DNA from: Candidatus Rariloculus versatilis
GTDB lineage: Bacteria > Pseudomonadota > Gammaproteobacteria > Steroidobacterales > Rariloculaceae
Assembly: GCA_028278665.1 (NCBI GenBank)
Contig: JAQAJI010000009.1
Location: 1 to 40,050 of the forward strand
DNA length: 40,050 nt
Reading direction: 5' to 3'
Of this stretch, positions 4,854-30,175 are shown piece by piece; position 1 is the stretch's first letter; each line of letters starts with the position of its first letter. The notes under the pieces are model-generated. The model had not been told where the DNA came from and ran no database searches. It worked only from the letters and a program-made list of their open reading frames with translations. Position numbers and translations under genes: made by a program.

Positions 4854-8587
<3,734 letters not shown>

Positions 8588-8652
8588 CTAGCAGCATACG
8601 TACCGAGCACAGGTTTCCTTACCAGCGCATCGCCCGCTCACAGCCACGAAAT

Positions 8653-8677
8653 TGTGCAGTACAAGCTGTGGTGCACA
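8653..8677. promoter_or_regulatory. Inverted repeat TGTGCA-N13-TGCACA between nifJ and gcvH
   Basis: Perfect 6-base arms TGTGCA (8653-8658) and TGCACA (8672-8677) separated by 13 bases, within the 346-base divergent gap between nifJ and gcvH. It could be an operator, but 6-base arms can arise by chance in a gap of this size. Confidence 0.2.
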
Positions 8678-8701
8678 CGAGGTGATGACCGAGCCCGGGA
8701 A

Positions 8702-8733
8702 CATATGCCAGTGACGCGAGGTCACACCATATG
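8702..8733. promoter_or_regulatory. Interrupted palindrome upstream of gcvH, possible operator
   Basis: CATATG (8702-8707) pairs with CATATG (8728-8733), and inside it GTGAC (8711-8715) pairs with GTCAC (8721-8725) around a five-base loop. It therefore forms a two-stage stem with a small internal loop. It lies about 40 bases upstream of the probable gcvH -10 box and in the shared regulatory region of two divergent operons. A glycine riboswitch was looked for in this gap and not seen. Confidence 0.35.
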
Positions 8734-21137: not shown

Positions 21138-21201
21138 CTGACCGCAACGCGTTTACTCCACCAGACAAAGTACCCTCAGGTAGCTACCCGGAGAACATAC
21201 G

Positions 21202-22980
21202 ATGATTCGTACCACACTCACCGACCCTGCGACCCGCGCCACGCTGACCATTGCGGCGCTCGCCTCGCTGCTAGGCAACCTGCTTTGCGTCCAGGCCACC
21301 GCACAGGAGAGCGAGTTCATCCCCGTCACGGACGAGATGGTGCAGAACCCGGACCCGGCCGACTGGCTGACCTGGCGGCGCACGCTCGATCACTGGGCCT
21401 ATAGTCCGCTTGAGCAGATCGACCGCGACAACGTCTCCGGGCTTCAGCTCGTATGGACGCGGCCGCTGTCGACGGGAATTCAGGAAGGCACTCCGCTCGT
21501 CTACGACGGCGTCATGTACTTCCCCGGTCCCGAGGACATCACGCAGGCACTGGACGCGGCGACCGGCGACCTGATCTGGGAGTATCGCAGGCCCTATCCC
21601 GACGACGTCAACGACTACATCCCCTTCCCGTCGATCAACCGCAACCTCGCGATCTTCGGGAACTACATTTTCGACAACGGCAATGACAACTACGCCTACG
21701 CGCTCGATGCGCGCACCGGCGAACTCGCCTGGGAAACGCAGATTCTCGACTACCGGCGCGGGGCGCAACACACCTCCGGGCCCATCATCGCGAATGGCAG
21801 GGTCGTATCGGGCCGCGGCTGCGAACCGGAGGGAGGACCCGAGGCCTGCGTGATCACGGCTTTCGATCCCGCGACGGGCGAGGAACTGTGGCGCACTCGA
21901 ACAATCCCGGCTCCGGGCGAACCCGGCGACGAAACCTGGGGCGATATCCCCTACGAGGAGCGCCGCCATGTCGGCACGTGGATGATCCCGAGCTTCGATC
22001 AGGAACTGAACCAGGTTTATATCGGTACCTAGGTCACGTCGCCGGCGCCAAAGTTCATGCTGGCGGGCAACGATGAGCAATACCTGTATCACAATTCGAC
22101 ACTGGCACTCGATGGCGATACCGGCGAGATCGTCTGGTATATGCAGCATGTCGTCGATCACTGGGACCTCGATCATCCGTTCGAGCGGCTGCTCATCGAT
22201 ACTGCCGTGACGCCCGACCCCGGTTCGGTCGAATGGATCAGCCCGCGCGTGCGCCCCGGCGAGACCCGCCGGGTCCTGACCGGCATTCCCGGCAAGACGG
22301 GTCTCGTCTACACGGTCGACCGCGAAACCGGCCAGTTCCTCTGGGCCCGGGAAACGGTCATGCAGAACGTGATCGCCGAGGTCAACACGGAATCGGGCGC
22401 GGGGGTCATCAACGAGGAAAACCTCTTCACGGGCGCCGATCAGGAGCGCTTCATTTGCCCGAGCCTCAACGGCGGCAAGAACTTCCCTTCCGGCGCCTAC
22501 AGCCCGCTGACCGGCCTGATGTACTTCCCGCTGCACAACACCTGCGCGGAGATGATTTCACTCGCCGAAGAACCGAGTCTCGACGAACTCTATGCGATCG
22601 ACTCGCGCATCGTGCTCCCGCCGGGTGTTGAGAACGCCGGAACCATCGAGGCCATTTCCGTGGAGACGGGCGAGACCGCCTGGAAGCTCGAGCAACGCGC
22701 CGGCGCGACGTCGCTCATGACGACCGGCAGCGGGCTTCTGTTCGGTGGCGACACGATGGGCATGTTCAAGGCGTACGATCAGGAGTCGGGCGAGGTGCTC
22801 TGGGAAGTCAGTCTCGGCTCGCACGTCACGGGCTATCCGGCGACGTATGCCGTCAACGGCCGGCAATACGTCGCGGTCAGCACGGGCGGCTCGCTGAATA
22901 CGCTCTCCATCGCGAACCTCGCACCCGAACGGCGCGCCGCTACGGCGAACAACCTGTACGTTTTCGCGTTACCGGAATGA
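21202..22980 (+). pseudogene. PQQ-dependent dehydrogenase, copy 1, interrupted by one in-frame TAG
   Basis: Periplasmic quinoprotein dehydrogenase (beta-propeller). ATG 21202 has GGAG eight bases upstream and a signal peptide ending ATAQES. The reading frame covers 593 codons, exactly as in copy 2 at 23351, with no indel, but codon 277 is TAG (22030-22032) where copy 2 has TCG (Ser): IGT-stop-VTSPAPKF. Tryptophan-docking repeats (LIWEYR, LAWETQ, LWRTRT, TAWKLE, VLWEVS), GCEPEGGPEACVITAFD and the catalytic-Asp region VDHWDLDHPFE are all kept, and differences from copy 2 look mostly silent or conservative. The stop is therefore young, read through, or a sequence error. An internal restart at 22057 would lack the signal peptide and half the propeller. 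Confidence 0.9.
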
Positions 22981-23225
22981 AAAGCTGAACTGGTGTCCGG
23001 TCATACCGCTGAAGTCACTCAAGCGCTACGCGGGCCAGGAGCCTGCGCCGCAGGATGTCGCGAAAGCGAAAAACCGATATCGCCGCCCCATCGTGCGATT
23101 GGTTTAGGCGAACACCGAGCCCTATTTGACGAAACCGATCGCGCGATGTGGCGGATGAGAGCGGATTTGCAGCCGTGAGTTCCTGCGGCACAGGCTCCCG
23201 GTCCGCGGGGCGAGCTGCGAACACG

Positions 23226-23310
23226 CTTGCCGCGCTTCCCGTCGCTTACGGCGATGGCCTGCCGAGGACGCTTTCGAACAATATTGACGTGCCGATCGGC
23301 GGCGCTCGAC
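23226..23310 (+). pseudogene. alr: Relic of an alanine racemase gene (C-terminal domain fragment)
   Basis: These bases read LAALPVAYGDGLPRTLSNN and then IDVPIGGAR, matching LLAVLLVGYGDGLSRGLSNN and LDVLIGGVR of the intact alr at 25223 (DNA identity about three quarters by eye, no gaps). The following 16 bases read LNELPP, echoing LNELPA that lies earlier in alr, so the relic may be rearranged. The preceding 22981-23225 shows only a faint match (VSSCGTG against VSYGHAY). The relic sits immediately before dehydrogenase copy 2, the place an alr would hold after copy 1 in a duplicated dehydrogenase-alr unit. Confidence 0.8.
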
Positions 23311-23350
23311 TCAACGAGCTACCGCCATGAACAAAACCGGAGAATCTGCG

Positions 23351-25129
23351 ATGACCCGTATGACACTCACTGCCCCTGTAGCACGCCTGCCGGCACTGGT
23401 CACAACCCTGGCGGCGGTGCTCGCCACGGCGCTTTGCATGCAGGTGACGGCTCAGGAGAGCGACTTCATCCCCGTCACCGACGAAATGGTGCAGAACCCG
23501 GACCCGGCCGACTGGCTGACCTGGCGGCGTACGCTCGATCACTGGGGCTATAGTCCGCTCGAACAGATCGACCGTGACAATGTCTCCCGGCTTCAGCTCG
23601 TGTGGACACGGCCGCTGAGCGCCGGTGTTCAGGAAGGCACACCGCTCGTGTACGACGGCGTCATGTATTTTCCGAGCCCGGATGACGTCACTCAGGCACT
23701 CGACGCCGCGACGGGCGATCTGATCTGGGAATACCGCAGGATCTACCCGGACGACATCAACGACTACATTCCCTATCCGTCGATCAACCGCAACCTCGCG
23801 ATTCTGGGGAACTACATTTTCGACAACGGCAATGACAACTACGCTTACGCGCTCGATGCCGAGACCGGCGAACTCGCCTGGGAAACGCAGATTCTCGACT
23901 ACAGGCGCGGCGCCCAGCACACCTCAGGACCCATCATCGCCAACGGCAAGGTCGTCTCGGGCCGCGGTTGCGAACCGGAGGGCGGGCCCGAAGCCTGCGT
24001 GATCACGGCATTCGATCCATTCACGGGCGAAGAGATCTGGCGTACTCGAACGATCCCGGCCCCGGGCGAACCCGGCGACGAAACCTGGGGCGACATCCCC
24101 TACGAGGAGCGCCGCCATGTCGGTACGTGGATGATCCCGAGCTTCGACCCGGAACTGAACCAGATTTACATCGGTACGTCGGTTACGTCCCCTGCTCCGA
24201 AGTTCATGCTGGCAGGCAACGATGAGCAGTACCTGTATCACAACTCGACGCTGGCGCTCGATGCCGATACCGGCGAGATCGTGTGGTACATGCAGCATCT
24301 CGTCGACCACTGGGATCTCGACCATCCGTTCGCGCGGCTACTGGTCGACACGGCCGTGACGCCCGACCCCGATTCGGTCGAGTGGATCAGTCCGCGCGTG
24401 CGCCCCGGCGAGGTCCGCAGGGTCGTGACGGGCGTACCCGGCAAGACCGGGCTCGTCTACACGATCGACCGCGAAACCGGCCAGTTCCTCTGGGCCCGGC
24501 AAACGGTCATGCAGAACGTGATCGCCGAGGTCAATACGGAGTCGGGTGCTGCACTGATCAATGAGGAGACGCTCTTCACGGCCGCCGGTCAGGAACGCCT
24601 GATCTGTCCGTCCCCCGCCGGCGGCAAGAATTTCCAGTCGGCCTCGTACAGCCCGCTGACCGGGGCGATCTACTACGCGTTGCACAATACCTGCTCCGAG
24701 ATGAGTTCGACGGCCGAGGAGCCAAGTCTTGACGACCTCTACGCGATCGCCTCGCGAGCCGTGTTACCGCCGGGCGAGGAGAACGTCGGCACGATCGAGG
24801 CGATTTCCGTCGAGACCGGAGAGACCGTCTGGAAGGTCGAGCAACGCGCGGGCGCGACGTCGCTCATGACGACGGCCACGGGTCTCCTGTTCGGCGGCGA
24901 CACCTGGGGCATGTTCCGGGCCTACGATCAGGAGACGGGCGAGGTGCTCTGGGAGGTCAGTCTCGGCTCTCACGTCACCGGCTATCCGGCGACGTATGCC
25001 GTCAACGGCCGGCAATACGTCGCGGTCAGCACGGGCGGCTCGCTGAATACGATGGGCCTGTCCAACCTCACGCCCGAACGCCGTGCAGGGACTGCCAACA
25101 ATCTCTACGTGTTTGCGCTGCCGGAGTGA
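23351..25129 (+). CDS. PQQ-dependent dehydrogenase, copy 2 (intact)
   Basis: A 592-residue periplasmic quinoprotein, presumably oxidising an alcohol or related substrate and passing electrons to a cytochrome. ATG 23351 (GGAG eight bases upstream) is preferred to ATG 23327, because it makes the gene the same length as copy 1. The signal peptide ends VTAQES. Propeller W-motifs recur (LIWEYR, LAWETQ, IWRTRT, VWYMQH, VWKVEQ, VLWEVS). The active-site Asp region is VDHWDLDHPFA. Where classical PQQ alcohol dehydrogenases have GTGN, whose Asn binds calcium, this protein has GTSVTSPAPKF, so metal binding may differ; copy 1 shares this. No c-type haem motif, so a separate acceptor is needed; none is adjacent. 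Confidence 0.93.
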   Translation: MTRMTLTAPVARLPALVTTLAAVLATALCMQVTAQESDFIPVTDEMVQNPDPADWLTWRRTLDHWGYSPLEQIDRDNVSRLQLVWTRPLSAGVQEGTPLVYDGVMYFPSPDDVTQALDAATGDLIWEYRRIYPDDINDYIPYPSINRNLAILGNYIFDNGNDNYAYALDAETGELAWETQILDYRRGAQHTSGPIIANGKVVSGRGCEPEGGPEACVITAFDPFTGEEIWRTRTIPAPGEPGDETWGDIPYEERRHVGTWMIPSFDPELNQIYIGTSVTSPAPKFMLAGNDEQYLYHNSTLALDADTGEIVWYMQHLVDHWDLDHPFARLLVDTAVTPDPDSVEWISPRVRPGEVRRVVTGVPGKTGLVYTIDRETGQFLWARQTVMQNVIAEVNTESGAALINEETLFTAAGQERLICPSPAGGKNFQSASYSPLTGAIYYALHNTCSEMSSTAEEPSLDDLYAIASRAVLPPGEENVGTIEAISVETGETVWKVEQRAGATSLMTTATGLLFGGDTWGMFRAYDQETGEVLWEVSLGSHVTGYPATYAVNGRQYVAVSTGGSLNTMGLSNLTPERRAGTANNLYVFALPE

Positions 25130-25222
25130 ACGCCCGCCTGAGCCGCTTTTGAACTTCCCGGCTGACGTCGTCACATCAAGCGCTGCTCGGCGGCGTAGCC
25201 GGCGCGGCGCGACCGCCGGGAA

Positions 25223-26416
25223 ATGGCGGCCTCATTGCATGGGACCGCCGTGACCGATCAAGCCAATGACCGGAACCGGCCGCAGCAGGTCGAGCGGCTC
25301 AACCGCATTTATCTTCACCTCGATCGCCTCGAGCACAACATGCGCGTGCTCGAGCGATGCGTCGAGGGTCGGCCACTGTGGCCATGCGTCAAGGCCAATG
25401 CCTACGGACACGGCGCGGTACCCATCGCGCGACGTCTTCTCACTCTCGGCCACAACCGGCTCGCGGTTGCCGATGTGGCCGAAGCGGCAGCGCTCACCGA
25501 GTCCGGGATCGATGCGACGTTCATGGTGCTTGCGCCCGCGTTGCCGGAGCACGCCGAAGCGCTCGTCACGCTCGGCTGCGAACCAGTCGTCTGCACGCTC
25601 GAGATGCTGCGTGCGCTCTCAGGCGCCGCGCATGCGCTCGGCCGAACCGTCCCGGTACATGTCAAGGTCGACACCGGGATGGGGCGCATCGGCATTCGGC
25701 CCGACGGGGTCGGAGAGTTCCTTGAAGCCTGCGCCGGCCACCCCGGCGTGATCATTCGCGGCATCATGAGCCACTTCGCTCGTGCCGACGAAGCTGACAA
25801 AGCCTTTTCGCATGCACAAACGGAGGTGTTCAGGGGCGCCGTCGAACAAGCGCGCGCGTTCGGCATCGAGTACGCCCACATGGCGAACAGTGCAGCGATC
25901 TTCGACGTCCCCGAAGCGCATTTCGACGCTGCCAGACCTGGCGTATCGATCTACGGACTCGCGCCGTCGGCGACCATCGCCAATCCGCAAGTGCAGGAAC
26001 TTGAGCCCGTACTCGAATGGAAGACCCGGATCGCCTTTCTCAACGAGCTGCCCGCCGGTGCAGGCGTAAGTTACGGACATGCCTACCGCACGGCACGTCC
26101 TTCGCTGCTTGCTGTGCTCCTTGTCGGCTACGGCGACGGTCTGAGCAGGGGGCTATCGAACAATCTCGATGTGCTGATCGGCGGCGTTCGCTGCCCGCAG
26201 GTCGGCCGCATCACGATGGACTCGACGCTCGTCGACGTCACGGCGCTGCGCGGTCGCGTCAACACGGGCGACGAGGCCGTTCTGATCGGCCGACAGGGCG
26301 ATGAACGGGTAACCGTGGACGAACTGGCCGACCGACTTGGGACGATCAACTACGAAGTCGTGACCGGGATCCAGACGCGCGTTCCACGCATCGCGGTTCA
26401 AGGCCCAGAGCACTGA
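25223..26416 (+). CDS. alr: Alanine racemase
   Basis: PLP enzyme interconverting L- and D-alanine for peptidoglycan. Up to 397 residues from ATG 25223; GTG 25250 (VTDQANDRN) is an alternative start and would be closer to the normal length. PLP Lys57 is in PCVKANAYGHG, the second catalytic residue Tyr284 in AGVSYGHAY, and VDTGMGRIGIR, MSHFARAD, RPGVSIYGL and GRITMDSTLVDVT are all typical. It is 93 bases downstream of dehydrogenase copy 2 with no terminator seen between. Its pairing with a PQQ dehydrogenase is repeated, in decayed form, just upstream. Confidence 0.95.
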   Translation: MAASLHGTAVTDQANDRNRPQQVERLNRIYLHLDRLEHNMRVLERCVEGRPLWPCVKANAYGHGAVPIARRLLTLGHNRLAVADVAEAAALTESGIDATFMVLAPALPEHAEALVTLGCEPVVCTLEMLRALSGAAHALGRTVPVHVKVDTGMGRIGIRPDGVGEFLEACAGHPGVIIRGIMSHFARADEADKAFSHAQTEVFRGAVEQARAFGIEYAHMANSAAIFDVPEAHFDAARPGVSIYGLAPSATIANPQVQELEPVLEWKTRIAFLNELPAGAGVSYGHAYRTARPSLLAVLLVGYGDGLSRGLSNNLDVLIGGVRCPQVGRITMDSTLVDVTALRGRVNTGDEAVLIGRQGDERVTVDELADRLGTINYEVVTGIQTRVPRIAVQGPEH

Positions 26417-26541
26417 AGGACTCGCCCGAAATGCCGTCCAAGCGCGTAGGTTTGAGACAAACTGCCCGGAATTCCAACTCGCGTATAGCGGCGGCAGCGG
26501 TAAGTATCCAGTGCGGTGGCGGCATCTCATCGAGTACGCTA

Positions 26542-26575
26542 TCGCGTTGGCTACATGCAAACGTAGCCATCGCGA
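26542..26575. promoter_or_regulatory. Strong inverted repeat before the ATPase module, likely operator or leader hairpin
   Basis: TCGCGTTGGCTAC (26542-26554) and GTAGCCATCGCGA (26563-26575) pair over 12 of 13 positions around the loop ATGCAAAC. It ends three bases before the GGGGAG ribosome site (26578-26583) of the ATPase gene. As DNA it is a good dimeric-repressor site; as RNA it would be a stable hairpin right next to the Shine-Dalgarno. No T-run follows, so it is not an ordinary terminator. Confidence 0.6.
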
Positions 26576-26588
26576 ACGGGGAGCGACA

Positions 26589-29054
26589 ATGCAAGTCGAA
26601 GAGCATCTGACCGCCATACAGTCGACTATGGACAGGGGCCAGCGTCAGGCGCCGGCTCGGGATTTGATGGATCTAATCGACCAGATGGGGCGCACGGAAT
26701 TGAACGTTTGGCGTCCGGACATCGAGCGGGTCATCGGTCAGTTTCACAAAAAGCTCCGCAATCAACTAACGGAGAGCCTGAACGAGCGCCTGTCGGGCCG
26801 CGCAAGCGCGGAGCAAGCCGACGCCGAATCCCACAAGATCGTCGACGCGCCAGCTCCCGAACCAACACAGTTCGTTCCGATCGACCCAACGCTGCTTGCG
26901 GACTTTCAGGCCGAGCTCGCCGTCCTGCAGGAGCGCCACATATTTCAATGGTCAACGTTCTATCGAGATTGCTTCGACGACTTCTTCAACCGCGTGCTGG
27001 ACGACATGGTCGTCGATCCCGCTCAGGATTCGACGTCGCCAATCGCCGAACTGCTTGCGGCTCATACGCAAGCCGTCTTTTCCCAAGGTTATGAATTCCA
27101 GTCCTCCCAGCATGGACATGACCACGCGGTCAGGAAATCTCTGAGCGGCTTGACGAGGTTCCTTGAACTGCAACTAGACTTCTATACCGCGCGCTCATCC
27201 AGCACTGACGACTACCGCTCGGCTGCCGGCTTGCGCTCGCTATTTTCCGCTGCTGTGTGCGGTATTCTCGAAGGATATGCTGCTCTGCAGTTTGGCGGGC
27301 AGAGCGGGCGGGAGATTCTTCCAAGATTTCAACGGCAGTGGATGCACTATGTCGCCTTCCTCAAGCCGGAACACGCACAACGCATAGTCGCTAGCATCGA
27401 ATCAGGCCCGTTACAACAGTCGTTGCAAACGTCGGTCCTTCCGATGCTGCGTGGTCTGGACACGTTCTTTCGCAACGACACCCGTGACTTCTGGCCAATG
27501 CCGGTGCTGGGCCAGTATTCGTGGAATCAAAGACGGCTCGATATCAGTTTCCGCCCGCCGCGAAACGCTGCAGTCCAGCGATTGATCCAGATCAGCACGT
27601 TTCTGGACGAGAGCTTCGTCAGGATCGAGGATCTAGAAGAAGCCCTTGGGCGGCAGGCTGTGCTGCTTCTAGCGCCGTTAAAGCCCGACGTACAACGCGT
27701 CGTCAGCGAACGCGAGCGGCTCAAGTCCATCGTTGTCGCTGTCGAACGCATCGGCGGCGGCGAAGAGAGAGATACGCACGCAAGCCTGGAGGCTACTGCG
27801 AACAAGGTCTACCGCATCCTCGACGAAGCGTTCTACCAATTGCGCAGCAAGTTACGCGCCAACGCGCCGATAACCTACAACTTCGCCCGCGAATTCCCGC
27901 TGCATCACCCTGAGCAGGCTTCATTCTTCCACGTGACACGGTCGAGCGTGCGTGACCTGCTTCGAACCTTCGAGCGCCGCAACGGCGTCAGGCTGTGGTG
28001 CAGCATACGGCGCAGCGGCAAGACCATGGCCTGCATGGACATGGGCACGACCACCGCTGAGTCGAGAATCATTCCGCAAACGTGCGGAGTACCTACGAAC
28101 AACGCGGCCGAGTTGGATGCACGGATCTTCTACGACCAATTGCGCAGCGCGATCGATTCGGGCCGCATGGTTCCGAGGACCTTCATCGCCGACTGCGTAT
28201 CTCAGTGCGCTCAGACAGACATCAATGACAAGCGGATTGTGCTCGTCATCGACGAATACGAAACGCTGTTTGGCTTGCTGGAGAGTGCGGTAGGAGAGAA
28301 CACCGCTGTTCGATACCGAGCGGTACAACCGATTCTCGATCAGCTTGTCGAGTTTTCACGGCAGAATCTACTCGTGTTTCTCGGCCAACAGCCCGATGCG
28401 CACTTTATCATGATGGACCAGAATCAACTGGCGCCGTACGTCACTCAGGATGCGTTCCCTCTATTCGAGCATGTGCAGGGCGCGGCCGCCGGCGAATTCG
28501 CGGCTTTGGTTGACAAGATTCTCTCCCGACGCATCGAGTGTTCGGCCGGGTTTCTCGACTTGCTGCACAATGAAACCGCAGGCCACCCGTACTTGACGGC
28601 CAACGTGTTGGTCGAATTCGTTGAGTGGTTGATCGAAGAAAAACGTCCGCAGCGCGATCTGACAGTTCGAGACGGCGACTTCCACGCGTTTTCGAGAGCC
28701 AGGCTAACTCCGAACAGAATGTTGCTGAGCGGTGAATACGAGTTCTTTCGAAGCGCTGCGGAAGCGGCCCTCTCGCGACAATGTCTCGATCAGATTCCCT
28801 GGCTTTATTTCGTCTATTGGATGGTTCGTTTGCTGGCGAAGGAGAACACCGCCGAACTGCGCGTTACTCTGGACGAATACAAGCATCTAGTAGAGCGCAT
28901 CCCCACCCCAGATGGGGCACCCCGCATGGACCGCTCGGAGATTCTTCGTACCGCATCGCACAGCAATTTTCTTGCTTATGACGAGCACCACGTTAGCGTC
29001 AAGGTCCGAACTCTCGGCCGCGTCGCGGCCGCGGTGCAACCGGCCTTGGCGTGA
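26589..29054 (+). CDS. Large ATPase of unrecognised family with atypical P-loop; module gene 1
   Basis: 821 residues from ATG 26589 (GGGGAG five bases upstream; an in-frame ATG at 26511 precedes the inverted repeat and lacks a site). Residues 1-450 are mostly helical with no domain I know. An ATPase core follows: a P-loop-like LWCSIRRSGKTMA with Lys478, in which the first glycine of GxxxxGKT is Ser, then Walker B RIVLVIDEYETLFG with Asp555-Glu556, and LLVFLGQQPDAHFIM in the sensor position. The RRSGKT and DEYE forms recall ORC/STAND-like NTPases, as found in many defence proteins. The C-terminal ~200 residues are helical, possibly winged-helix. Codon use is less GC-biased than in neighbouring genes, suggesting acquisition. 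A partner gene follows 39 bases later. Confidence 0.8.
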   Translation: MQVEEHLTAIQSTMDRGQRQAPARDLMDLIDQMGRTELNVWRPDIERVIGQFHKKLRNQLTESLNERLSGRASAEQADAESHKIVDAPAPEPTQFVPIDPTLLADFQAELAVLQERHIFQWSTFYRDCFDDFFNRVLDDMVVDPAQDSTSPIAELLAAHTQAVFSQGYEFQSSQHGHDHAVRKSLSGLTRFLELQLDFYTARSSSTDDYRSAAGLRSLFSAAVCGILEGYAALQFGGQSGREILPRFQRQWMHYVAFLKPEHAQRIVASIESGPLQQSLQTSVLPMLRGLDTFFRNDTRDFWPMPVLGQYSWNQRRLDISFRPPRNAAVQRLIQISTFLDESFVRIEDLEEALGRQAVLLLAPLKPDVQRVVSERERLKSIVVAVERIGGGEERDTHASLEATANKVYRILDEAFYQLRSKLRANAPITYNFAREFPLHHPEQASFFHVTRSSVRDLLRTFERRNGVRLWCSIRRSGKTMACMDMGTTTAESRIIPQTCGVPTNNAAELDARIFYDQLRSAIDSGRMVPRTFIADCVSQCAQTDINDKRIVLVIDEYETLFGLLESAVGENTAVRYRAVQPILDQLVEFSRQNLLVFLGQQPDAHFIMMDQNQLAPYVTQDAFPLFEHVQGAAAGEFAALVDKILSRRIECSAGFLDLLHNETAGHPYLTANVLVEFVEWLIEEKRPQRDLTVRDGDFHAFSRARLTPNRMLLSGEYEFFRSAAEAALSRQCLDQIPWLYFVYWMVRLLAKENTAELRVTLDEYKHLVERIPTPDGAPRMDRSEILRTASHSNFLAYDEHHVSVKVRTLGRVAAAVQPALA

Positions 29055-29093
29055 ATCGCTAGTGATCCTTATTAAGCCCGCCGGCTCGCTGCC

Positions 29094-30110
29094 ATGAATC
29101 CGCTGCAGCTCATCAATGAGATTCGCCGCCGTCGCGAACGCGACGATACTGCGAGTGCGTTAAATGTCTGCTGGTTGGCCTTGTCCGGAGACCGGGACCA
29201 ATTCGCGGAAGCGCTGCTGGGTACCCGCGAAGATTCTCCGATCGTTCCGTGGATACTTCGCGTATCTGGACTTTTTCGCGATACCAATGAAGTCATGAAC
29301 GACATCGCCCATGTACTTAGAGAAAGTCGCGCGCGGCTCAGCGGAGGCGTTGATGTCATCGTATTGAGCCGAACCGAGCTTGAGTTGATTAGCACGTCGT
29401 CGCCTATTCTGCTTCCCGAGTGGTTTCCGGTTACGCCCGGGCGTACCGTGACTGCGCAAGTCCACGACCTTACATGGGGCGTTAACGTCTCGATGGCCGA
29501 TGAGATTCTGGAGTTGGACGATCTGCGAGGTATCCTGCACAGCCTTGACGTGGCGCTGATCGCTCGGTGGCGTCAGTGCCATGGAGCGGACCACCGGCGA
29601 AGTCAAGCCATATGGGATCAAATTCGCCGGAACTCCGATCAAGATATTGTTTCCGCGATGGACGATATCCAAGCCACACTGAGCAACGTCCAAAATTCGT
29701 CAAATTACAGACCCAGTACGAGGCAAAACAGGACGCTGATCGAGCGGCTTTGGTTCCTTGCAAACAAAACCTCACCCGACAAGCTACCCAGAAGGGCAAA
29801 TGCACTGGCAGTCGCTCTGTGCGCTGAAGAACTGCTGTTCCCAAGCGACGGCCAACCCCTGCAATCCCTGCTCGCCGTGCTTGCCCGACCGGGCAACCCA
29901 ATTTCGGACCCGGGCGCCCTGTGGTGCTATCAGTTGATCGTGACGCTGAGAAATGCCTGCCAGATGGTTACCGCAGCAGCCCATGCAGACGAGTACCCAC
30001 CGTATCCACGTGCGCTCCTGAAGACGGTGTCGCTCGATTTGCGGTTATTTCTCCATGCCGCCACCGGTGCTCTTTACATAGCCAATGGTTCAAGTGGTAG
30101 AACACCGTAG
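29094..30110 (+). CDS. Unrecognised 338-residue partner of the ATPase; module gene 2
   Basis: No signal peptide, membrane segment or catalytic motif that I can identify. The N-terminal ~170 residues hold MNPLQLINEIRRRRERDD, ILLPEWFPVTPGRTVTAQ, VHDLTWGVNVS and LDDLRGILHSLDVALIARW, a mixed alpha/beta stretch. The rest is helical and Arg-rich (RPSTRQNRTLIERLWFLANK; LLKTVSLDLRLFLHAATGAL). It starts 39 bases after the ATPase stop, on the same strand, with equally atypical codon use, and no promoter or inverted repeat lies between, so the two are probably one transcript. No ribosome site is clear; ATG 29094 is the first start. Ends with TAG. Whether it is an effector, adaptor or sensor cannot be told. 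Confidence 0.75.
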   Translation: MNPLQLINEIRRRRERDDTASALNVCWLALSGDRDQFAEALLGTREDSPIVPWILRVSGLFRDTNEVMNDIAHVLRESRARLSGGVDVIVLSRTELELISTSSPILLPEWFPVTPGRTVTAQVHDLTWGVNVSMADEILELDDLRGILHSLDVALIARWRQCHGADHRRSQAIWDQIRRNSDQDIVSAMDDIQATLSNVQNSSNYRPSTRQNRTLIERLWFLANKTSPDKLPRRANALAVALCAEELLFPSDGQPLQSLLAVLARPGNPISDPGALWCYQLIVTLRNACQMVTAAAHADEYPPYPRALLKTVSLDLRLFLHAATGALYIANGSSGRTP

Positions 30111-30175
30111 GATTCCAAGTCCGCCGGCGGATCACGAGCTGGGCCGCGGCAAGCGACTCCGGCGGCAAATTGCCT

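What the first reader, a model, noticed from the sequence alone, without database searches (positions are those of the whole stretch)
21202..26416. Decayed tandem duplication of a PQQ dehydrogenase-alanine racemase unit
Dehydrogenase copy 1 and copy 2 are both 1,779 bases with no indel. Copy 2 is followed by intact alr; copy 1 carries a TAG and is followed by an ~85-base fragment that aligns without gaps to codons of the alr C-terminal domain (VAYGDGLPRTLSNN). The order DH-alr(relic)-DH-alr points to duplication of a two-gene unit and loss of the first one. It also implies that the dehydrogenase and the racemase travelled together.
Basis: partly seen in the sequence, partly recalled or inferred. 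Interest (0 to 1): 0.6.

Follow-up and report, generated by a model that had tools for sequence, protein, structure and literature searches.

The report
Old tandem gene duplication, truncated racemase
A dehydrogenase gene and most of the neighbouring alanine racemase gene were copied in tandem before three related species split, leaving two dehydrogenases and a small racemase scrap that has since been largely deleted and interrupted by a short mobile hairpin repeat; this is ordinary genome evolution.

Summary
DH1 (21202-22980) and DH2 (23351-25129) are both 1,779 bases, align without a gap and are 84.4% identical. An 84-base racemase scrap (23225-23308, 76% to alr codons ~295-322) lies between them, and DH1 has one in-frame TAG. 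Two same-genus genomes also carry DH1-DH2-alr. DH1s group together and DH2s group together, so the duplication predates the three species. Sequence after the DH1 stop resembles the DH2-alr spacer, and one relative keeps the scrap's last ~30 bases at the same place. (1) The copy probably ended inside alr, so no second intact racemase need ever have existed. (2) DH1 is not decayed: it is intact in both relatives, and outside its first 60 codons it shows no relaxation here, so the TAG is very recent or an assembly error. (3) 'Travelled together' is not supported: DH next to alr was found only in this genus. (4) Half of the gap is a 167-bp hairpin repeat (23035-23201) with at least 41 places in this genome, REP-like ends, and no copy at this site in either relative; no RAYT transposase was found. 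Ordinary overall; the repeat family is the livelier part.

The parts
21202..22980 (+). DH1, upstream copy of the PQQ-type (beta-propeller) dehydrogenase; in-frame TAG at 22030-22032
   Evidence: orthologues intact in G001 and G002
22981..23034 (+). spacer after DH1, resembling the DH2-alr spacer
   Evidence: alignment reached by 1 of 1000 shuffles against the own DH2-alr spacer; orthologous to the G001 and G002 spacers
23035..23201 (.). 167-bp palindromic interspersed repeat with REP-like inverted ends
   Evidence: at least 41 places in own genome; 66+70 end matches, control 0; hairpin z -8.0; absent from the matching site in G001 and G002
23202..23224 (+). short stretch between repeat and relic, similar to part of the G001 DH1-DH2 spacer (origin in spacer or in alr not settled)
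23225..23308 (+). alr relic: alr codons about 295-322
   Evidence: last ~30 bases also present in the G002 spacer
23309..23337 (+). inferred duplication joint between alr codon ~322 and the DH ribosome-binding site
   Evidence: homology of the DH1 and DH2 units starts at 21188/23337; same junction in G002
23351..25129 (+). DH2, downstream intact copy (ORF opens at 23327)
25130..25249 (+). DH2-alr spacer (alr read from the GTG at 25250, the start seen in G001 and G002)
25223..26416 (+). alr, intact alanine racemase, the only one found in the genome (ATG at 25223; GTG at 25250 is the start shared with relatives)
   Evidence: TIGR00492 303 bits against cut-off 168

Best explanation
Before the three known species of this genus split, a segment of roughly 2.8 kb was duplicated in tandem. 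It ran from the dehydrogenase ribosome-binding site through the dehydrogenase and the spacer into alr at about codon 322. The product is DH1-spacer-alr(truncated)-joint-DH2-spacer-alr(complete). Only the downstream alr was ever whole; the upstream piece was dead from birth and has been eroded by deletions, completely in G001, to ~30 bases in G002 and to ~84 bases here. Both dehydrogenases stayed under purifying selection and diverged. In this lineage a 167-bp mobile hairpin repeat then entered the spacer after DH1, and DH1 acquired one very recent TAG (or carries an assembly error). Shown: sister copies, their age, the relic, the shared relic/DH2 junction, spacer similarity, the repeat and its absence at this site in relatives. 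Inferred: the breakpoint inside alr, and the order of the later events.
For: DH1 clade 90/89, DH2 clade 100/96, both together 100/100, with outgroup paralogue G002:C5. Paralogue dS 0.41-0.55 against orthologue dS 0.29-0.40. DH1-DH2-alr in the same order and orientation in both same-genus genomes. Relic score 249 against shuffle maximum 179 of 500. Spacer similarity: 1 of 1000 shuffles reaches it for G0 DH1sp/G0 DH2sp and for G1 DH1sp/G0 DH2sp. The relic's 3' end runs directly into the DH2 leader in both G000 and G002. No alr sequence 3' of codon ~322 lies in the gap, since only 28 bases separate the relic from the start of DH homology. The relic is equally far from the G000 and G002 alr (both 76% over 84 bases), as expected for an origin at or before the split.
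Against: No genome with a single-copy DH-alr state was found, so the pre-duplication arrangement is not seen. G001 has no recognisable relic. Spacer similarity is significant in only some pairings: of nine, two are reached by 1 of 1000 shuffles, three by 12-30, and four by 172-702. The gapped alignment can be drawn out a further ~15 bases past codon 322 at low identity, so the exact end of the relic is soft. The breakpoint inside alr cannot be told from a full copy followed by an old deletion.
Confidence: 0.7

Rival explanations
1. The whole DH-alr pair was duplicated and the first alr was intact at first; later deletions removed its start and its end.
For: Same relic, sister dehydrogenases and spacer similarity.
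Against: Needs an extra deletion that ended exactly at the DH2 leader before the G000-G002 split; no clear trace of alr codons 323-397 or of sequence downstream of alr lies in the gap.
Confidence: 0.2
2. Only the dehydrogenase was duplicated; the alr piece was copied into the gap later by an unrelated event.
For: G001 has no relic; the relic is only 84 bases.
Against: The relic lies in the predicted place and orientation and joins the DH2 leader in two species; the spacer after DH1 resembles the DH2-alr spacer; the relic is not closer to the G000 alr than to the G002 alr.
Confidence: 0.08
3. The scrap is a remnant of a different racemase with no dehydrogenase neighbour.
For: None positive; seven native-type racemase loci of other family or order genomes were tried as candidates.
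Against: Scores to those seven loci (91-167) lie within their own shuffle ranges (maxima 126-181); genus alr scores are 219-260. Of the four loci of the same alr type outside the genus, L086 and L087 exceed their shuffle maxima slightly (154 against 138, 184 against 170) and G014 and L088 do not.
Confidence: 0.02

Closest known systems
Tandem segmental duplication with a breakpoint inside a gene (general knowledge, recalled)
   Same: Two direct copies, one full and one truncated flanking gene, a unique joint
   Different: Old (predates three species), with the joint region eroded and interrupted by a repeat
PQQ-dependent alcohol/sorbose-type dehydrogenases (PDB 4cvb, 7wmd, 4mh1, 9m2c by sequence)
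   Same: Match over about 550-570 residues, E 2.1e-120 or better
   Different: Below the TIGR03075 cut-off (334 against 480 bits); no PqqC, and no PqqE over the cut-off, found in the genus genomes
REPINs (paired inverted REP sequences; PMC3116915, passages seen) and REPs of the GTAGGAGC type (PMC2817692, passages seen)
   Same: Inverted REP-like ends with a small internal palindrome, hairpin, many copies, single-REP remnants at some orthologous sites
   Different: Mostly 167 bp here (72-bp forms in relatives); CCAG/CTAG head; no Y1 transposase (PF01797) found in the three genus genomes

Membership tests
Tandem duplication of a DH-alr unit | the two dehydrogenases are each other's sisters | tested here: met
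   DH1+DH2 100/100 in a 19-row tree
Tandem duplication of a DH-alr unit | homology between units continues past the DH stop into the spacer and alr | tested here: met
   spacer reached by 1/1000 shuffles in two of nine pairings; relic 249 against shuffle maximum 179
Tandem duplication of a DH-alr unit | a relative with the single-copy state (supporting, not strictly required) | tested here: inconclusive
   both same-genus genomes have the tandem pair; no other genome searched has DH next to this alr
Alanine racemase (TIGR00492) | score above curated cut-off over both domains | tested here: met
   303 bits, cut-off 168; PF01168 and PF00842
PQQ-dependent alcohol dehydrogenase | PF01011 beta-propeller above cut-off | tested here: met
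   199.7 bits, cut-off 26.7
PQQ-dependent alcohol dehydrogenase | TIGR03075 subfamily cut-off | tested here: not met
   334 bits, cut-off 480
PQQ-dependent alcohol dehydrogenase | binds PQQ / catalytic residues | not tested
   no residue-level or biochemical test made
REPIN | two inverted REP sequences forming a hairpin | tested here: met
   (z -8.0)
REPIN | many dispersed copies | tested here: met
   41 places; 136 end matches, control 0
REPIN | RAYT (Y1 transposase) in the genome | tested here: not met
   none in G000, G001, G002 (drafts, 92-97% complete); E. coli control rings
REPIN | mobile: filled and unfilled orthologous sites | tested here: met
   (this locus); 5 of 9 joined flanks span an unfilled or partly filled site in a relative
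REPIN | copies lie outside genes | not tested
   gene positions around the copies were not determined
MITE | target-site duplication | tested here: inconclusive
   none seen by eye in 20 bounded copies or at unfilled sites; a short one is not excluded
MITE | longer autonomous partner with the same ends | tested here: inconclusive
   no end pair 1-3 kb apart noticed in the listed places, but the list for G000 was cut

The most novel reading that the evidence does not exclude
The inserted repeat belongs to a family of mobile hairpin elements (about 72, 167 and 182 bp) with REP-like ends that spreads in this genus without a RAYT transposase, by a helper not yet recognised.
Probability: 0.3. Interest if true: 0.5.

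Novelty: new member of a known kind. Interest (0 to 1): 0.22.

Why it matters
As a duplication it is a clean small case: two paralogues kept, a truncated neighbour eroded to different lengths in three species, and a joint still readable in two of them. It warns against reading a gene scrap as proof that two genes travelled together. The 167-bp repeat matters slightly more, because REPIN-like populations are held to depend on a RAYT, and none was found here.

Tried and rejected
Considered and rejected: that the scrap comes from another racemase; that DH1 has long been a pseudogene (outside the first 60 codons, 20 nonsynonymous and 60 synonymous changes on the G000 branch, against 15/57 in G001 and 11/37 in G002); that the whole DH1-DH2 gap is racemase decay. 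The neutral stop-codon simulation is weak evidence: 118 random changes gave 3.7 stops on average, and one or none in 10% of trials. The spacer tests against G002 were negative in four of five pairings and weak in the fifth (12 of 1000). The Rfam hit to MIR918 (48.6 bits, gathering 268) is taken as a chance match to a long hairpin. Families for the two ORFs downstream of alr gave nothing convincing. A paper search for the MAG names gave 0 papers; two further searches gave listings in which I saw nothing on this locus; no other search for this locus or repeat in print was made.

Rows dropped or limited: the tree used 19 rows that I chose, 6 of the genus locus and 13 near paralogues out of the many matches; one of these (L074, G009) has three X from stops or N, and G0_DH1 has one X at its TAG. 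One search aligned 39 sequences, 38 fetched regions plus the window; one of the 41 places, at a contig end, was not fetched, and one fetched region holds two places. One search scored only 40 of 146 candidates, so 41 places is a lower bound.

Full report
What was checked. The window is contig C112 of a 2.9 Mb draft genome (122 contigs, 92% complete). Two genomes of the same genus are held as G001 and G002. DH1 (21202-22980) and DH2 (23351-25129) are both 1,779 bases and codon-align with no internal gap at 84.4% nt. DH1 has one in-frame TAG at codon 277. The racemase scrap at 23225-23308 matches 26107-26190 at 76% with E 1.3e-9, is in register, and scores 249 against a maximum of 179 in 500 shuffles.

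Age and relationship. Both same-genus genomes carry DH1, DH2 and alr in the same order and orientation, with DH1 and DH2 71-92 bases apart. In a 19-row tree the three DH1 group together (90/89), the three DH2 group together (100/96), and the two groups are sisters (100/100); the next relative is a paralogue elsewhere in G002. Paralogue dS is 0.41-0.55 and orthologue dS 0.29-0.40. In windows of 150 bases the G001 copies are unusually alike over alignment positions 150-900 (0.93-0.95), which suggests some gene conversion. The duplication therefore predates these species.

What was duplicated. The sequence after the DH1 stop resembles the DH2-alr spacer. Of nine pairings of the three species' spacers, two are reached by 1 of 1000 shuffles, three by 12-30 of 1000, and four are not significant (172-702 of 1000). 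Homology of the two units starts at 21188 and 23337, at the ribosome-binding site of the dehydrogenase. The relic ends at alr codon ~322, about 28 bases before that point. In G002 the DH1-DH2 gap keeps the last ~30 bases of this relic region joined to the DH2 leader in the same way (26 of the 28 bases beginning CGATCGGCGGCG are identical, by my count on the alignment). The junction is therefore older than the G000-G002 split. The simplest reading is a tandem duplication whose right end lay inside alr: the upstream racemase was truncated at birth, and only the downstream one was ever complete. This last step is inferred. G001 has lost the relic, but its spacer is the one most like the DH2-alr spacer of G000.

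State of DH1. DH1 is open in G001 and G002. On the G000 branch, outside the first 60 alignment codons, there are 20 nonsynonymous and 60 synonymous derived changes, against 15/57 in G001 and 11/37 in G002. Including the first 60 codons the counts are 46/72, 16/59 and 12/45, so the leader region of the G000 copy has changed a good deal. After the TAG they are 14/36, 8/29 and 7/20. The TAG is therefore very recent, or an error of the assembly; 'decayed' and 'loss' overstate it.

Do dehydrogenase and racemase travel together? Of 125 loci tested, 113 have a racemase match, 19 have a dehydrogenase match, and 7 have both; all 7 come from the three genus genomes, some as duplicate loci. The four nearest racemases outside the genus (G014 62%; L086, L087 and L088 58-60%) have no dehydrogenase in the flank available (upstream 641, 1782, 2342 and 804-807 bases); in the genus the two genes are about 93-119 bases apart. 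In 296 genomes of the order only four have a racemase of this type at E 1e-60 (G000, G001, G002, G014). Family members otherwise have a type 26-36% identical to it, and G000, G001 and G002 have no other racemase match. The alr therefore looks acquired in the genus, and its place behind the dehydrogenase is local to it.

The rest of the gap. A 167-bp palindromic repeat lies at 23035-23201. It occurs in at least 41 places in this genome at 72-89% identity apart from itself. Its 22-base end pattern gives 66 forward and 70 reverse matches in G000, 43 in G001 and 25 in G002, with backward-read controls of 0, 0 and 1. Seven of 39 genomes match the repeat at E 0.001 or better (G000, G001, G002, G016, G019, G020, G032). 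Of 20 copies with both ends recognised among the 39 sequences, 13 are exactly 167 bases. In the listing I count ten end pairs 72 bases long in G001 and two in G002, besides longer ones of about 167 and 182. The DNA folds as one hairpin (-53.9 kcal/mol, z -8.0). The ends read CYAGGAGC-CTGC-GCC-GYAG-GAA, like the GTAGGAGC-type REP sequences listed for Xanthomonas and Pseudomonas in PMC2817692 (passages seen). At this locus G001 and G002 lack the repeat. Of nine other copies whose flanks I joined and searched, five have a match across the junction in at least one relative: three without the repeat, and two (L187, L193) where G002 keeps a single or partial REP end while G001 has none; the other four did not match across the junction. 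So the repeat is mobile or was so recently. REPINs are proposed to be moved by RAYT transposases (PMC3116915, passages seen). No Y1 transposase was found in G000, G001 or G002, while the same search rings in E. coli. These are drafts, so absence is not proved.

Verdict. The interest lies in the repeat family and is modest.

Noticed in passing
window 23035-23201: Copy of a 167-bp hairpin repeat family with REP-like ends; at least 41 places in this genome, 72-bp and ~182-bp forms in relatives, no RAYT found.
   Followed up: partly
G000, G001, G002 genomes: These genomes give 26-30 matches each to the PQQ dehydrogenase query, but no PqqC match and no PqqE match over the curated cut-off was found in any of the three; of the 20 genomes searched only G005 and G028 have both over the cut-off. 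The enzymes may rely on outside PQQ or on no PQQ.
   Followed up: partly
window 26417-30152: A ~3.7-kb stretch of lower GC (0.58 against 0.63-0.68) directly downstream of alr, absent from G001 and G002, with two ORFs (26589-29054, 29094-30110) that match no Pfam, PADLOC or PHROGs family convincingly.
   Followed up: partly
window 25223-26416: This alr is the only racemase found in the three genus genomes and is of another type (58-62% to four loci outside the genus, 37-46% to Chloroflexota, Bacillota and others) than that of most family members (26-36%); likely an acquired replacement.
   Followed up: partly
L193 (G000:C1 near 8558-8724): A copy of the repeat whose central part is inverted relative to the consensus.
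   Followed up: no
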